In this document: piece after piece, positions 37,924 through 44,051 of the stretch
Position numbering within the stretch: position 1 is the stretch's first letter
Layout: every line of letters starts with the position of its first letter
Source of the DNA: Acidocella sp.
GTDB taxonomy: Bacteria; Pseudomonadota; Alphaproteobacteria; Acetobacterales; Acetobacteraceae
Assembly: GCA_026224875.1 (NCBI GenBank)
Contig: JAMFRU010000117.1
Span: forward strand, 1-64,000
Direction of reading: 5' to 3'
Length of the DNA: 64,000 nucleotides
Made by a program: the position numbers and the translations under genes
Notes under the pieces: generated by a model
The model's input: only the letters and a program-made list of their open reading frames with translations
Told to the model about the DNA's origin: nothing
Databases searched by the model: none

Positions 37924-38919
37924 CTAACCCCCGCCGGATAAAAACACCGTGGCCAGACTCGGCGCCGATGAGGGCAGACCGCGGCCTTCGATGAAAGCCA
38001 GGATATCGGCATTGGGGGTGGCGCGTTCGAGGTCACGCGGGATGAGGTGGTAGTCCGGCGGGTAGAAGGCAAGCGTAACCGGCGCACCGGCGGGGATGGC
38101 TTCCCAGCAATCGCGCATGGCATCAGGCGGAACCAGCTCGTCATGCCCGCCGTACAGGATGAGCGCGAGCTGGCGGAAATTTACACAAGCAGATTGGGCC
38201 TGGCCCATGAGAGTGACCAGCCCGGCAACATGATCGATCCTGGGCGCGTGCATGGTCAGCGGGTCCTCGCCAAAAGCGATCAGGGCCGGCACGTTGTCGG
38301 ATGCCTCCACATGCACGGATTGGCCGGTAAGGCGCCGGCCGGGGTCGAAGAAGGCGGCAACCCGCAGCGTCTCGCGATACCCTGGGCTCATGGAAGGCCC
38401 GCCCCAAACAGCGGGGGCAGAGAGAATGTAGCCATCCACCGGCGGCGGATTGGCCGAGGCCCCCAAAAGCATGCCAATGGCACCGCCCATGCTCTCGCCC
38501 ATGATGTACAGTTTTACCCCTGGGTATTGCGCGCGCAGCTGGATCGCCTCGTCACGCGCCTCATCCACCAGCACCGCGGTGCCGGGCCAGTGGCCGCGGT
38601 TGGCGGTAGCACCGAAGGAGGACAGGTCCGGCGCGTAGATTTCTATCCCATGCGGGGTGAGGCCGGAGGCCAGAATAGCCCAGCCGTCGCGGCTGTCGGT
38701 ATAGCCGTGCAGGGCCAGAACCACTTCCCGCACCGGCCCCTGGGCAGGGTACAGGCGGTAGGGCTGGCGGGCGCCATCCGGCAGAGCAAAATAGCCGCTG
38801 GTGATGATGGGGTAGCCGGTCTGGCTTTGCGGCACGCCAAAAGGGATGGGGGTACAGCCGGTAAGCGCCATATTGGGAAATACGCCAAGCCACGCTAATA
38901 GGAGGAGCAAAGATTTCAC
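37924..38919 (-). CDS. Lipoprotein alpha/beta hydrolase (lysophospholipase-like)
   Basis: About 331 residues. A lipoprotein signal is seen (KSLLLLLAWLGVFPNMALTGC) with lipidation at Cys22. The mature part has VVLALHGYTDSRDGW and nucleophile elbow MGESMGGAIG, with a late Asp/His pair (GGHDEL; DYHLIPRD). It resembles monoacylglycerol lipase / lysophospholipase. The start is taken as GTG 38919 because the codons before it are not needed for the signal peptide; longer frames upstream run antisense through the zinc-finger and polA genes. It is divergent from the zinc-finger gene with 18 bases between. Confidence 0.85.
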   Translation of the reverse strand: MKSLLLLLAWLGVFPNMALTGCTPIPFGVPQSQTGYPIITSGYFALPDGARQPYRLYPAQGPVREVVLALHGYTDSRDGWAILASGLTPHGIEIYAPDLSSFGATANRGHWPGTAVLVDEARDEAIQLRAQYPGVKLYIMGESMGGAIGMLLGASANPPPVDGYILSAPAVWGGPSMSPGYRETLRVAAFFDPGRRLTGQSVHVEASDNVPALIAFGEDPLTMHAPRIDHVAGLVTLMGQAQSACVNFRQLALILYGGHDELVPPDAMRDCWEAIPAGAPVTLAFYPPDYHLIPRDLERATPNADILAFIEGRGLPSSAPSLATVFLSGGG

Positions 38920-38937
38920 CCAGCGAGGCAGGATTTT

Positions 38938-39123
38938 ATGGACACGCAGCCGCAAGCCACCGAAATTGTTCACGTCCAAAGCTCTACCGTCTCCTGCGAT
39001 GGCGGGGACGGCCCGCTGGGGCACCCGCGTGTCTATTTGCGCATAACCGGCGTCCAAGTCACCTGTCCGTATTGTTCCAAACTGTTCGTGCTGGAAGAGG
39101 GTGCGACGGATTCGGGCCATTGA
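38938..39123 (+). CDS. Small zinc-finger domain protein (zf-CHCC type)
   Basis: 61 residues with C...GHPRVYL.......CPYC, the pattern of the zf-CHCC family related to the mitochondrial complex I subunit NDUFS6. The pattern predicts one zinc site (Cys-His-Cys-Cys). In Alphaproteobacteria such proteins are found near respiratory or housekeeping genes; the function is not established. AGGA is just upstream of ATG 38938. The stop TGA overlaps the likely TTG start of polA. Confidence 0.85.
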   Translation: MDTQPQATEIVHVQSSTVSCDGGDGPLGHPRVYLRITGVQVTCPYCSKLFVLEEGATDSGH

Positions 39124-41816
39124 GGCTCGTTCTGGTCGACGGCTCGGGGTATATCTTCCGGGCCTACCACGCGATTCCGGACATGCAGCGGGCCGATGGC
39201 GTGCATGTGAACGCCGTTTTCGGCTTCTGCAACATGATGGCCCGGCTGCTGAAAGACCATACCGGCTCGCATCTGGCGGTAATTTTCGATGCCGGGCGGT
39301 ATACATTCCGCAACCGGCTGTACGAGGCATATAAGGCGCACCGGCCGGAGGCGCCGCCGGAACTGGTGCCGCAATTCGCGCTCATCCGCGAGGCAACACG
39401 GGCATTCGGTCTCTCCTGCATCGAGCTGGACGATTGGGAGGCCGATGATCTGATCGCCGCCTACGCCAAGGCCGCGGTCGAGGCCGGCGGCGAGGCGGTG
39501 ATCGTCTCCTCCGATAAGGATTTAATGCAGCTGATCCGGCCGGGCGTGGAAATGCTCGACCCGATGAAGAACGTACCAATCGGCCTGGCCGAGGTAGAGG
39601 CCAAGTTTGGCGTCACACCGGATAAGGTCGTCGAGGTGCAGGCGCTGATCGGCGATAGCTCCGATAACGTGCCGGGCGTGCCGGGGATTGGGCCGAAAGG
39701 TGCAGCCCAGCTGATTGCCGAATACGGCACGCTGGAGGCCGTGCTGGCAGCGGCTCCGGGCATGAAGCCCAGCAAGCGGCGCGACATGCTGATCGAGCAT
39801 GCGGACAAGGCGCGGATTTCCAAAGAGCTGGTGATTTTGCGTGACGATGCGCCGCTACCGGAGCCAATCGAGGCGTTCGCCGTAAAACCGTGGGATGCGG
39901 CGGTGCTGCGCGACTTCCTGGTGTTCAACAATTTCAAAAGCATCCGCCACCGGCTCGGGTTGGAGGAAAGCGAGAGCCCGGTGGAGCTGGTACCGGCAGC
40001 GGACGCCGCACCATTCGGGCCTTATACGGTGGTAACCTCGCTGGAGGAGATTGTGGCCCAGGCGCGAACCTCGGGCGCGGTCGCGCTTTCGGTGCAAACG
40101 GATGATCCGGCCTCGCTGCATGGCAATCTCGCCGGCATCGGGTTCTGCACGGAGGCCGGGCGCGCTGCGTATCTACCGCTCACGCATAATCTGGGGTTGG
40201 AGGACGCGCCGCAATTGCCGCTGGCACAGGTGGTGGAGATTCTCGGGCCGCTGCTCACCGATGTAAGCGTGCTTAAAATTTTCCATGATGCCAAGCGGGG
40301 CCTTGAAGTTTTCCGGCGCGCGGGATTCCCCGCCGTGACACCTTTCGACGATGTGATGCTGATTTCCTACGCGCAGGACGCAGGGAATTTCGCGCATGAT
40401 GCGGCGACCCTGGCGCGGGTACATTTAAACCACGAGGCCGGGCATGTGGATGGTGTAACCGGCACCGGGCGCGGGCGCTTGGCCTTTGCCAGTGCCGCTC
40501 TGGACAAGGCCGTGGCATTCGCGGCCGAGGGCGCGGATATTTCGTTGCGGCTATGGCAGATGCTAAAGCCGGCACTGCGCGTGCATAAAGCGCTGGCTTT
40601 GTATGAGCTGATCGAAAAGCCGCTGACCCCGGTGCTGGCGGATATGGAAGAGTACGGCGTGATGGTGGACCGGGCTGATCTGTCCGCCATGTCCGTCGAG
40701 TTTGAAGGCCGGATGGCTGAGTTTGAGAAAGAAATTTATCGCCTCGCCGGGCAGGAATTTAATGTCGGCAGCCCGAAGCAATTGGGCGAGCTGCTGTTTG
40801 AAACGATGAAGCTTCCGGGCGGCAAGAAGGGCAAGGCCGGGGCCTGGGGGACGGATTCATCCGTGCTCGAGGATCTGGCCGAACAGGGGATTGAGATTGC
40901 GCAACGCGTGATGGATTGGCGGCAGCTCTCGAAGCTGAAAAGCACCTATGCGGATGCGTTGATCGGGCAGATCGATGCGGTGACCGGGCGTGTGCATACG
41001 AGTTTCCAGATGGCAGTGGCGGCAACGGGACGGCTCTCCTCGACCGATCCGAATTTGCAGAATATCCCGATCCGCACGATTGAAGGGGCGCGGATACGCA
41101 AGGCGTTTATCGCAGCCCCTGGGTGCAGTTTAATCTCCGCCGATTACTCCCAGATCGAGCTGCGGCTGCTAGCACACGTGGCGAATATCCCGGCCCTGAA
41201 AGAGAGTTTCGCGCAGAGTGAGGACATCCACGCGCGTACCGCCTCCGAGGTTTTCAACGTACCGATGGCGGGCATGGATTCAGCCACGCGCCGGCGCGCC
41301 AAGGCGATCAACTTCGGCATCATCTACGGGATTTCAGCATTCGGCCTCGCCCGCCAACTAGGCATTCAGCCCGGCGAGGCGAAAATCTATATCGATGCCT
41401 ATTTCAAACGCTACCCTGAAATCCGCGCCTATATGGACAACACCAAGGAACAAGCCCGCATCAACGGCTTCGTCCTCACCCCCTTCGGCCGCCGCTGCTG
41501 GGTACCGCGGATAAAAGATAAAATCCCAGCGCTGCGGGCCTACGCCGAACGCCAGGCCATCAACGCCCCCCTACAAGGCGGCGGCGCGGACATCATCAAA
41601 CAAGCGATGGTGCGCCTACCACGAGCATTTGCCGAATCCGGCCTAAAAACCCGGCTGATTTTGCAAGTGCATGACGAGTTACTGTTCGAGGCGCCGGATG
41701 CGGAGGCAACGGCGGCGGCGGTGCTGGTGCAGAAGGTGATGCAGGGGGCGGCGGAAATTTCTGTTCCACTGGTTGTGGAGACGGGGGTGGGGAAGAATTG
41801 GGGAGCGGCGCATTAG
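39120..41816 (+). CDS. polA: DNA polymerase I, with degenerate proofreading site
   Basis: About 898 residues. The 5'-nuclease (1-290) has LVDGSGYIFRAYHA, DDLIAAYAK, SSDKDLMQL and GDSSDNVPGVPGIG. The polymerase motifs are intact: A SADYSQIELRLLAH, B RRRAKAINFGIIYG, C LQVHDELLFE. The 3'-5' exonuclease region (about 300-480) has lost its metal ligands: aligned with E. coli, D355 and E357 become Ser324 and Gln326 (LSVQTDD), D424 becomes Gly394, and Y497/D501 become Phe467/Gly471 (FAAEGAD). It should fill gaps and remove primers but not proofread. Start TTG 39120 overlaps the zinc-finger stop; an in-frame TTG at 39072 is the alternative. Confidence 0.95.
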   Translation: MRLVLVDGSGYIFRAYHAIPDMQRADGVHVNAVFGFCNMMARLLKDHTGSHLAVIFDAGRYTFRNRLYEAYKAHRPEAPPELVPQFALIREATRAFGLSCIELDDWEADDLIAAYAKAAVEAGGEAVIVSSDKDLMQLIRPGVEMLDPMKNVPIGLAEVEAKFGVTPDKVVEVQALIGDSSDNVPGVPGIGPKGAAQLIAEYGTLEAVLAAAPGMKPSKRRDMLIEHADKARISKELVILRDDAPLPEPIEAFAVKPWDAAVLRDFLVFNNFKSIRHRLGLEESESPVELVPAADAAPFGPYTVVTSLEEIVAQARTSGAVALSVQTDDPASLHGNLAGIGFCTEAGRAAYLPLTHNLGLEDAPQLPLAQVVEILGPLLTDVSVLKIFHDAKRGLEVFRRAGFPAVTPFDDVMLISYAQDAGNFAHDAATLARVHLNHEAGHVDGVTGTGRGRLAFASAALDKAVAFAAEGADISLRLWQMLKPALRVHKALALYELIEKPLTPVLADMEEYGVMVDRADLSAMSVEFEGRMAEFEKEIYRLAGQEFNVGSPKQLGELLFETMKLPGGKKGKAGAWGTDSSVLEDLAEQGIEIAQRVMDWRQLSKLKSTYADALIGQIDAVTGRVHTSFQMAVAATGRLSSTDPNLQNIPIRTIEGARIRKAFIAAPGCSLISADYSQIELRLLAHVANIPALKESFAQSEDIHARTASEVFNVPMAGMDSATRRRAKAINFGIIYGISAFGLARQLGIQPGEAKIYIDAYFKRYPEIRAYMDNTKEQARINGFVLTPFGRRCWVPRIKDKIPALRAYAERQAINAPLQGGGADIIKQAMVRLPRAFAESGLKTRLILQVHDELLFEAPDAEATAAAVLVQKVMQGAAEISVPLVVETGVGKNWGAAH

Positions 41817-41898: not shown

Positions 41899-42618
41899 AT
41901 GGTTGGCCTGTCTCCCCGCTGGCGCCGCTTGGTTAAACTGCTCACCTGGGTGTGGGCGGTGTTTTTGTGGTATGGGCCGATGGCCGTTTTTCTCGCGTGC
42001 CGCTTCAATTGGCAATTATCTCAAGGGTCTGTTTTGTTGGCTTGGGTGTACTGGCCAGGTGTGATCAGCGCCATTGCCGCGCTCGGCACAGGTTTTATGC
42101 TGGTTTTTGATATGCCGAGGCGCGCTATTGTGCCATTCCTGCTTTTTTCGGCCAGTGCCACTCTAATATTCTCCCCCCTGGGTGACATCCTCACTGTGAA
42201 ATCATTTGCTGACCACAGCAAGCCGGAAGCGGCCTATGTAAAGAAGCATTGCGCACCCGTGGATTTTGTTCAGGATGGAAAAACTTATTGGTTCGGCGCG
42301 TGCGATCTAAAGCTCGATGCCACCGGTCAGATTGCTGACTTGACGTTTTATTACGACACGAGCGGCGATCTTAAAAATTATGACTCTCTCTCCAAGGCGG
42401 ACAAACAAATCTTCGCCGCCGCTGTCCGAGAACATTTTAATGACGATCCGAATGAACCATTCGAGCATGCTTATTTTACCGCAATCCACTTCTATCGAAA
42501 TTTTTACGATATCGATTTCATCGACGAAGACGCTGGCGGATTTACCTCTGATTTTGGACCTCCACCTGAGAATTCGAAAAATCCGTATTCCCCATTGTTT
42601 TGGAGTAAGCATTCATGA
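41899..42618 (+). CDS. Uncharacterised membrane protein, first gene of an orphan pair
   Basis: 239 residues, not recognised. Three hydrophobic segments occupy residues 12-105 (LLTWVWAVFLWYGPMAVFLA, VLLAWVYWPGVISAIAALGTG, VPFLLFSASATLIFSPLGDI). The soluble C-terminal half has two cysteines (KKHCAPVDF and WFGACDLK) in a beta-rich stretch and ends in aromatic, acidic sequence (HFYRNFYDIDFIDED). The base composition is visibly lower in GC than the flanking genes, and the codon use differs. It has its own promoter and overlaps the next gene as ATGA. An anchored partner or immunity-type protein is possible but unsupported. Confidence 0.7.
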   Translation: MVGLSPRWRRLVKLLTWVWAVFLWYGPMAVFLACRFNWQLSQGSVLLAWVYWPGVISAIAALGTGFMLVFDMPRRAIVPFLLFSASATLIFSPLGDILTVKSFADHSKPEAAYVKKHCAPVDFVQDGKTYWFGACDLKLDATGQIADLTFYYDTSGDLKNYDSLSKADKQIFAAAVREHFNDDPNEPFEHAYFTAIHFYRNFYDIDFIDEDAGGFTSDFGPPPENSKNPYSPLFWSKHS

Positions 42619-44051
42619 GTGGCGAAATATTTTACGTAAAACCGGAGGCTGGCCGGGACAAAAGCGGGAATATTATTCCTGATGAGTTTCATCCTATCCC
42701 GGCAAAATTCCTGATCGTGAATGGAAAGAAGGTTCTCGACCCCAATCCGGAACCGCTCCACAAAATCAACCTCTACCGGAAGCTGGACGCCAATGGCCGG
42801 ATTGATGATTCGAGTGTTTTCCAAAACTCCGGCAACTACCTGATCGTACCGGCCAATTACGACCCGTCCGAGGCCATGCAATTTGCCGGTACAGTAGATG
42901 CGGGCATGACCGCGGCAACGGGGTTTGCCGGGCCCGAAGCGGGAGCAGCGGTAGGGTTGGCCGCCATGACAAGCGCTTTTGTGCCTGGAGGTGAGCAGGA
43001 CCTGCAACGTAATGAACGCTGGGGAATACCACAAGGAGAAACCTCACCCGCATTCCGCGATTCCGCCTCGTGGAATCTCGGCCTTGTCACGCAAACCACG
43101 GCTCTACCAGACGCCGCCGCCGTGGCTGGTGGTGCGGCGGTGAATGCTGCAGGGTATCTTTGGGAGTTAGTCAAACAGAAAGCGGCTGGCAGTTCCGCCC
43201 CCACCCAAAAACTGAATGGCCCCCTCGGCATGTCGGACATCGATTACCAGTCGTTTCTGGCCGGCGTGCAATCCGGCAAAATTTCCGAGAAAGACGGCAT
43301 CATCGGTGTGTATCGCTGGCTTCGTGAACATACGTTGAATGGCGCGAAAGATACCGGCAGTACACTTCACGGCTTGGCGCTGGGTCTGGGCCGGCCAGGG
43401 CTTGGCGGGTTTGCCCCTGTTGGCCGCACGAAGCCCCTGCAGCGTAGAGCCGTGCCGAGGCCGCAAGGCGCGCACGGTGCGGTGACAACACCAACAGCAC
43501 GGCAGACGGAACATGGCGGCGCAACGGCGCTCGGTGGTGGCGAACCATTCGCAGCCAATGCACCCGGTTACAAGACCGTACTGGCGCAGGCGAAGGCGCT
43601 GGCCGCGCAACAGCGGCAGAACCGGGAGGCGGCAGCAAACGGGATGTATCTGGCACCATCGGGGAATGGGCTGGAGGGTATCTCCTTCGCACCCATCGGC
43701 ACGCATGGGCTTGGCCCCGCCGCGCGTTTTGCGGCCCGTACGCAGCCATCCGGCACGGCGGCGGAGATGCCGATGCCCCAGCAGGCGGATTTTGCGGGGG
43801 AAACGCTCGTTCCGGGCCAAGCGCCGGGCCAAGCCGGCACGGCCCTGGCCGCCGCCCAGGCCGGGAGGCACGAAGCCGCGGGCACGTTGGCAGCCATGAC
43901 CGCATCAGGGACACCCGCCGCTAGTACTGCGGATGCCGGGCGCGCGCTTGATGATTATTTCTTTCGGCAGTCGCGCCTGCCGCCGCGCGGCGGGGCCGCA
44001 TTCAACCCGTTTCTCTCACCGCTCTGGGCCGGGCTGAAAATACCCGGCTGA
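42615..44051 (+). CDS. Uncharacterised Ala/Gly-rich protein, second gene of an orphan pair
   Basis: 478 residues, not recognised. The N-terminus (about 1-75) is a compact polar domain starting SGEIFYVKPEAGRDKSG. Residues 80-190 are rich in small residues (AAVGLAAMTSAFVPGGEQ, AAAVAGGAAVNAAGYLW), which could be membrane-interacting. The middle holds DIDYQSFLAGVQSGKISEKDG. The last 200 residues are low-complexity, ending DDYFFRQSRLPPRGGAAF followed by NPFLSPLWAGLKIPG. That ending reminds me of the C-terminus of some phage tail or tape-measure-like proteins; this is weak. Translationally coupled to the membrane protein. An effector or phage-derived origin is inference. Confidence 0.65.
   Translation: MSGEIFYVKPEAGRDKSGNIIPDEFHPIPAKFLIVNGKKVLDPNPEPLHKINLYRKLDANGRIDDSSVFQNSGNYLIVPANYDPSEAMQFAGTVDAGMTAATGFAGPEAGAAVGLAAMTSAFVPGGEQDLQRNERWGIPQGETSPAFRDSASWNLGLVTQTTALPDAAAVAGGAAVNAAGYLWELVKQKAAGSSAPTQKLNGPLGMSDIDYQSFLAGVQSGKISEKDGIIGVYRWLREHTLNGAKDTGSTLHGLALGLGRPGLGGFAPVGRTKPLQRRAVPRPQGAHGAVTTPTARQTEHGGATALGGGEPFAANAPGYKTVLAQAKALAAQQRQNREAAANGMYLAPSGNGLEGISFAPIGTHGLGPAARFAARTQPSGTAAEMPMPQQADFAGETLVPGQAPGQAGTALAAAQAGRHEAAGTLAAMTASGTPAASTADAGRALDDYFFRQSRLPPRGGAAFNPFLSPLWAGLKIPG

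What the first reader, a model, noticed from the sequence alone, without database searches (positions are those of the whole stretch)
39120..41816. DNA polymerase I with a dismantled proofreading site
The polymerase and 5'-nuclease motifs are intact, but all five metal/catalytic positions of the 3'-5' exonuclease are replaced by alignment with E. coli Pol I: D355 to Ser324, E357 to Gln326, D424 to Gly394, Y497 to Phe467, D501 to Gly471. The domain itself is kept in length. Loss of proofreading is known in Thermus and Bacillus Pol I; I do not know it to be described for this group. It would make gap-filling error-prone.
Basis: partly seen in the sequence, partly recalled or inferred. Interest (0 to 1): 0.72.

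Follow-up and report, generated by a model that had tools for sequence, protein, structure and literature searches.

The report
DNA polymerase I without working proofreading
The DNA repair and gap-filling enzyme of this Acidocella-like bacterium has kept the shape of its error-correcting part but lost every catalytic residue in it, a change found in all the members of its genus that were read, repeated in several related bacteria, and of a kind already known elsewhere.

Summary
The polA gene (39120-41816, +) keeps all tested polymerase and 5'-nuclease residues; E. coli D355, E357, D424, Y497 and D501 are Ser324, Gln326, Gly394, Phe467 and Gly471. The exonuclease domain is still recognisable (PF01612, 34 bits) and predicted to fold like Klenow fragment. 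It is not a sequencing error: 31 of 31 same-genus genomes read (of 38 searched) lack the motif, while a sister row has it. None of the 31 has Asp at the D424 site and 30 have Asp at the N420 site; the other ligands are eroded to different degrees. The loss recurs in 12 of 48 sampled genera of the family, with 8-9 changes on trees. The domain evolves faster than the rest but not neutrally, so it looks like a kept scaffold. DnaQ and MutS are present. The kind is known: about half of bacterial Pol I orthologs lack the motif (PMC12926913), and H. pylori Pol I was shown to lack editing (PMC3121766). New here: the lineage, its recurrence in Acetobacteraceae, the graded decay, the N420-to-Asp signature. 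No activity was measured.

The parts
39120..41816 (+). polA, DNA polymerase I, 898 aa, TTG start
   Evidence: Pfam; start position shared by 21 of 28 genus rows
39123..39899 (+). 5'-3' nuclease domain (PF02739 + PF01367, residues 2-260), all 7 tested acidic residues kept
40038..40577 (+). Vestigial 3'-5' exonuclease domain (PF01612, residues 307-486, 34 bits)
40089..40097 (+). Exo I site: Ser324-Val-Gln326 in place of D355-x-E357
40287..40289 (+). Asp390 at the E. coli N420 position; directly precedes predicted helix 391-400
40299..40301 (+). Exo II site: Gly394 in place of D424
40518..40532 (+). Exo III site: Phe467 and Gly471 in place of Y497 and D501
40677..41804 (+). Family A polymerase domain (PF00476, residues 520-895, 503 bits), tested catalytic residues kept
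38938..39123 (+). Small zf-CHCC zinc-finger ORF (61 aa) whose stop overlaps the polA start (TTGA); possible translational coupling
   Evidence: same overlap in 13 of 28 genus rows; coupling inferred

Best explanation
This is an ordinary bacterial DNA polymerase I whose 3'-5' exonuclease became catalytically dead, most simply in the ancestor of its genus (Acidocella by its named relatives), and has since eroded, while the domain is kept as a folded scaffold for the polymerase. Pol I would then fill Okazaki gaps and repair patches with 5'-nuclease and polymerase only, without idling or editing at the primer end; this should help strand displacement, mismatch extension and lesion bypass. Overall fidelity would rest on polymerase selectivity, DnaQ in Pol III, and mismatch repair. 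Shown: residues, predicted fold, distribution in the genus members read, relaxed but not neutral constraint, presence of DnaQ and MutS. Inferred: absence of activity and the cellular consequences.
For: All five catalytic positions replaced, tested polymerase and 5'-nuclease residues intact. 31 of 31 same-genus genomes read lack the motif; row L068 from the sister genus has it. AlphaFold2 model: mean pLDDT 88.5, ten-residue blocks 77-96 across 301-490; matches Klenow chains 1kfs, 1d8y and 1kln over 585-587 residues, Z 41-42, rmsd 2.0-3.0 A. Columns conserved in at least 95% of 69 intact family rows are kept in 27 genus rows at 37 of 68 (exo) against 115 of 122 (5'-nuclease) and 180 of 191 (polymerase); at polymerase divergence of 5-20% the median exo/pol ratio is 2.35 in the genus against 1.73 in intact rows. 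Genus median dN/dS is 0.415 for exo and 0.151 for pol. DnaQ over its cut-off in 37 of 38 genus genomes and MutS matched in 37 of 38; the window genome's DnaQ shows the DEDDh residues. Biochemical precedent: H. pylori Pol I.
Against: No activity was measured. 11 of 31 genus rows keep at least one of D355, E357 and D501 (L009 keeps E357, Y497 and D501), and two (L067, L069) have Glu at the D424 site, so residual activity in some members is not excluded. dS values near 1 make the dN/dS figures rough. Coordinates of the model were not available, so distances in the pocket could not be measured.
Confidence: 0.9

Rival explanations
1. The exonuclease site was rebuilt rather than lost: Asp390, one helical turn before the lost D424, and other nearby acids hold the metals in a new arrangement, so some 3'-5' activity remains.
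For: Asp at the N420 site in 30 of 31 genus rows, none of which has Asp at 424; across 206 rows Asp there in 41 of 49 lost and 0 of 157 intact rows. Bacillus Pol I (Bst structures, 'FDSKRA') has Asp and M. smegmatis Pol1 ('HEAKLA') Glu at the aligned site.
Against: E357 and D501 are both gone in 29 of 31 genus rows. Bst and Taq Pol I are exo-deficient enzymes (recalled). Constraint on the domain is clearly relaxed. In the model Asp390 directly precedes helix 391-400, which fits a plain N-cap role.
Confidence: 0.05
2. The loss was selected because it turns Pol I into a translesion or strand-displacing enzyme that takes over from error-prone polymerases.
For: DnaE2 over its cut-off in only 8 of 24 genus genomes, against 38 of 39 intact family genomes tested; the window's genome has no DnaE2-level match and one Y-family match. 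H. pylori Pol I does mutagenic bypass, and that species lacks translesion polymerases.
Against: The other 11 genera with lost sites keep DnaE2 (9 of 11 over the cut-off, the other two as fragments), so the link is one clade only. Relaxation fits the decay without selection for a new role.
Confidence: 0.2
3. Compensated loss: another 3'-5' exonuclease edits for Pol I in trans, so the loss has little effect.
For: DnaQ is present and shows the DEDDh residues in the window genome.
Against: No exonuclease family among the six flanking ORFs scanned; no second full-length polA found in the draft genome. Other exonucleases in the genome were not searched for.
Confidence: 0.3
4. Sequencing or assembly error.
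For: The genome is a draft of 145 contigs.
Against: The same class of change in 31 of 31 same-genus genomes read, the nearest (L003, another assembly) at 89% identity.
Confidence: 0.005

Closest known systems
Bacterial PolA1 (Pol I orthologs) with inactivated Exo3-5 domain, as surveyed in PMC12926913
   Same: Canonical three-domain architecture with a substituted DEDDy motif and intact 5'-nuclease and polymerase domains
   Different: The passages seen name Firmicutes, Tenericutes and Actinobacteria; 'Alphaproteobacteria' and 'Acetobacter' do not occur in the main text. Its supplementary tables could not be read, so this lineage may be listed there
Helicobacter pylori Pol I (HP1470), PMC3121766
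   Same: D355, D424 and D501 missing, domain shape kept, shown to lack editing
   Different: Different class; all five positions lost here; H. pylori lacks translesion polymerases, whereas the window's genome keeps one Y-family match
Bacillus stearothermophilus Pol I (Bst / BF)
   Same: Vestigial exonuclease domain; Asp at the N420 site and Ala at the D424 site (alignment, read by eye)
   Different: Firmicutes lineage; the model matches it less closely than Klenow (Z about 37 against 41-42)
PolA2 / APEX of Actinobacteria
   Same: Family A polymerase with a dead exonuclease domain
   Different: PolA2 lacks the 5'-nuclease domain and has a QxxLF clamp motif in the vestigial domain; here the 5'-nuclease is present and a QxxLF-like pattern was not found in the genus rows

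Membership tests
PolA1 (Pol I ortholog) | 5'-nuclease, DnaQ-like exonuclease and family A polymerase domains in one chain | tested here: met
   Four Pfam families over their cut-offs
PolA1 (Pol I ortholog) | Polymerase catalytic residues | tested here: met
   R638, D675, R724, K728, Y736, H851, D852
Proofreading (DEDDy) Pol I | D355, E357, D424, Y497, D501 | tested here: not met
   S, Q, G, F, G
Pol I with inactivated 3'-5' exonuclease | Domain fold retained with catalytic residues lost | tested here: met
   (fold by prediction)
Pol I with inactivated 3'-5' exonuclease | No measurable 3'-5' excision | not testable with these tools
   Needs a purified enzyme
PolA2 / APEX | No 5'-nuclease domain | tested here: not met
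   5'-nuclease present
PolA2 / APEX | QxxLF clamp motif in the vestigial exonuclease domain | tested here: not met
   Pattern scan of E. coli positions 281-520: no hit in the genus rows

The most novel reading that the evidence does not exclude
Dead Pol I exonuclease domains converge on an acidic residue at the N420 site, one helical turn before the lost D424. It occurs in no intact enzyme sampled and arose several times. The shift may be a general step in Pol I exonuclease decay, either stabilising the metal-free pocket (helix N-cap, charge balance) or, more boldly, holding a metal in a rearranged, non-canonical site. Together with the cluster of repeated losses in Acetobacteraceae this would make the decay path of a proofreading domain readable step by step.
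Probability: 0.35. Interest if true: 0.5.

Novelty: new member of a known kind. Interest (0 to 1): 0.38.

Why it matters
Pol I proofreading is often treated as a standard part of bacterial replication fidelity, yet it is widely dispensable. In this family intact and lost versions sit in neighbouring genera, and within one genus the site is at different stages of decay. That allows clean comparisons: mutation rate and lagging-strand bias in sister genera, and enzymology of natural intermediates such as L009 (D355 and D424 lost) against the window's enzyme (all five lost).

Tried and rejected
Sequencing error: rejected, found in every genus member read. PolA2/APEX or a clamp-binding variant: rejected (the pattern used was a loose QxxLF-like one, with 9 hits among 155 intact rows and 3 among 43 lost rows, none in the genus; 8 further rows, without a label in that script, had no hit). 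A second polA supplying proofreading: the other PolA-family match in the genome (G000:C63, L002) is a 370-aa ORF, 27% identical over 217 alignment columns, with PF00476 as its only Pfam match. A general link between loss and DnaE2: not supported outside the genus. Association of Asp420 with D424 loss specifically: suggestive only; by hand from the list (Firmicutes rows L032 and L036 left out), with the genus and the pair L142/L154 each counted once, 6 of 7 without D424 against 4 of 9 with it. Independent-pairs test of loss against Asp420: 6 pairs on starred branches, about 3 in the same direction, none opposite, median p 0.25, not significant. Placement of L006+L009 inside or at the base of the genus is unresolved (AU p 0.33). 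Four lost rows from different GTDB families group together in the FastTree tree (L163, L170, L177, L189); in the mixture-model tree L170, L177 and L189 still do, but L163 pairs with L165: long-branch attraction or transfer, unresolved. The states of the two Firmicutes rows L032 and L036 change with the alignment, so they carry no weight. Genomes of phyla other than the window's own could not be sampled with the genome search. Papers: PMC12926913, PMC3121766 and PMC11253446 were read as passages (the last held nothing useful); all others were seen as listings only. That the Acidocella case is not in print rests on searches of an open-access library only.

Full report
Observation. The ORF at 39120-41816 (+) is DNA polymerase I: PF02739 and PF01367 (5'-nuclease), PF01612 (3'-5' exonuclease, 34 bits, cut-off 23.6) and PF00476 (polymerase, 503 bits). 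The TTG start lies where 21 of 28 genus rows that cover it also have a start-like codon. L361 and F473, substrate contacts by recall, are changed too (P330, V443), while intact family rows keep Leu and Tyr/Phe there; the R455 site is Gly in 49 of 52 intact family rows and so is uninformative. All seven tested 5'-nuclease and all seven tested polymerase residues are kept.

Distribution in the genus. Named relatives place the genome near Acidocella (Acidocella aminolytica 76%, several Acidocella MAGs 73-74%; the nearest at 89% is an unnamed bacterial MAG). Of 38 same-genus genomes searched, 35 had a polA match; polA covering the exonuclease was read from 31, and all 31 lack the DEDDY motif. Four genomes with fragmented polA and three without a match were not read. 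At the D424 site the 31 have G 18, S 4, A 4, N 3 and E 2; at the N420 site D 30 and V 1. E357 survives in 1 (L009), D501 in 2 (L006, L009), D355 in 9; 11 of 31 keep at least one. The sister row L068 is intact. The simplest history is loss of D424 with N420D on the stem, then erosion of the rest; it needs L006+L009 to be basal, which the best genus tree does not show but does not reject (AU p 0.33).

Distribution beyond. Reading the genus codes against the motif table, 48 genera of the family were sampled, 40 of them by one row; 12 have lost the motif (g1, g2, g7, g10, g25, g40, g47, g49, g60, g70, g72, g81), the 11 other than g1 by one row each. Elsewhere in the class 5 of 90 rows have lost it (L163, L165, L170, L177, L189); in other classes of the phylum 2 of 37 have lost it (L228, L247) and 5 more have only D424E. 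Rows were taken from matches the searches listed, mainly full-length ones, so these are not frequencies of all genomes. The tree without the exonuclease columns needs 9 changes of state (198 rows, FastTree) or 8 (62 rows, IQ-TREE mixture model; starred branches force at least 5). The loss is therefore recurrent, although the grouping of some lost rows is uncertain.

What has happened to the domain. Of columns conserved in at least 95% of 69 intact family rows, 27 genus rows keep 37 of 68 in the exo domain, against 115 of 122 in the 5'-nuclease and 180 of 191 in the polymerase. At polymerase divergence of 5-20%, median exo/pol divergence is 2.35 (171 genus pairs) against 1.73 (353 intact pairs); at 20-30% it is 2.21 (177 pairs) against 1.43 (1702 pairs). 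Pairs share branches, so they are not independent. Median dN/dS with a common dS is 0.415 for exo and 0.151 for pol in 156 genus pairs. In 4078 intact pairs it is 0.414 and 0.297: those pairs are more diverged and dS near 1 is rough, so the absolute exo value does not separate the groups; the exo/pol ratio of dN does (2.84 against 1.41). Constraint is relaxed but present. AlphaFold2 on 34 aligned sequences gives mean pLDDT 88.5 and pTM 0.65. The model matches Klenow chains at Z 41-42 over 585-587 residues with rmsd 2.0-3.0 A (Foldseek). S324 and Q326 lie in predicted strand 320-327, G394 in helix 391-400, F467 and G471 in helix 461-488, as expected for the DnaQ-like site.

The N420 site. Asp at this position is found in 41 of 49 lost rows and 0 of 157 intact rows; with 40 further rows, 40 of 56 and 0 of 190, where the 56 include the five D424E rows. 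The genus supplies 30 of the Asp rows. On the 62-row tree the trait needs 8 changes, at least 4 on starred branches. Bst Pol I has Asp and M. smegmatis Pol1 Glu at the aligned site. In the model the residue directly precedes helix 391-400, so Asp as an N-cap once Asn is no longer needed for catalysis is the simplest account. The tree-aware pairs test was not significant.

Rest of the fidelity machinery. DnaQ (TIGR01406) is over its cut-off in 37 of 38 genus genomes, and the window genome's copy has the DEDDh residues by eye in the translation. MutS is matched in 37 of 38, over the cut-off in 34. DnaE2 (NF004225) is over its cut-off in 8 of 24 genus genomes, in 38 of 39 intact family genomes and in 9 of 11 other lost genera, the remaining two showing fragments. 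The window's genome has no such match and one Y-family match. So loss of Pol I editing is not tied to DnaE2 in general, although the two coincide in this genus.

Mechanism. Most likely Pol I here works with the 5'-nuclease and polymerase only, and the third domain is structural. Consequences are inferred from precedent: H. pylori Pol I, which lacks D355, D424 and D501, shows no excision of mismatches, extends most of them and bypasses lesions, yet has good intrinsic accuracy; passages of the same paper cite E. coli genetics in which loss of Pol I editing gives a lagging-strand mutator (PMC3121766).

Novelty. The kind is known and common: about half of Pol I orthologs in a survey of over 3000 species (PMC12926913). 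No paper in the searched library holds both Acidocella and DNA polymerase I. The new points, as far as these searches reach, are the lineage, the recurrence in one family, the graded decay and the N420 signature.

Noticed in passing
window 38938-39123 (+): A 61-aa zf-CHCC zinc-finger ORF whose stop overlaps the polA start (TTGA), suggesting coupled translation; the same overlap is seen in 13 of 28 genus rows tested.
   Followed up: partly
G000 and the genus: DnaE2 (error-prone polymerase) reaches its cut-off in only 8 of 24 genus genomes, against 38 of 39 intact family genomes tested; absent at that level in the window's draft genome.
   Followed up: partly
L002 (G000:C63:722-1348, -): A second family A polymerase ORF of about 370 aa with PF00476 as its only Pfam match, 27% identical to polA; origin not established, possibly a mobile element.
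   Followed up: partly
L239, L243, L244, L250, L252: Five rows from other classes of the phylum carry D424E with the rest of DEDDY intact; possibly an active conservative variant.
   Followed up: no
L124, L203, L229, L238, L240, L241, L245, L259, L261: Nine enzymes with an intact motif have His instead of Asn at the N420 site; none of the 190 intact rows has Asp there.
   Followed up: no
window 37924-39330 (-): The alpha/beta hydrolase ORF overlaps the start of polA on the other strand; its Pfam match covers residues 199-434 only, so the true start is probably further in.
   Followed up: no
window 41899-42618 and 42615-44051 (+): Two overlapping ORFs downstream of polA (239 and 478 aa) with no Pfam match at E 0.001.
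   Followed up: no
L163, L170, L177, L189: Exo-dead PolA from four different GTDB families group together in the FastTree tree; the mixture-model tree keeps L170, L177 and L189 together; artefact or transfer.
   Followed up: partly
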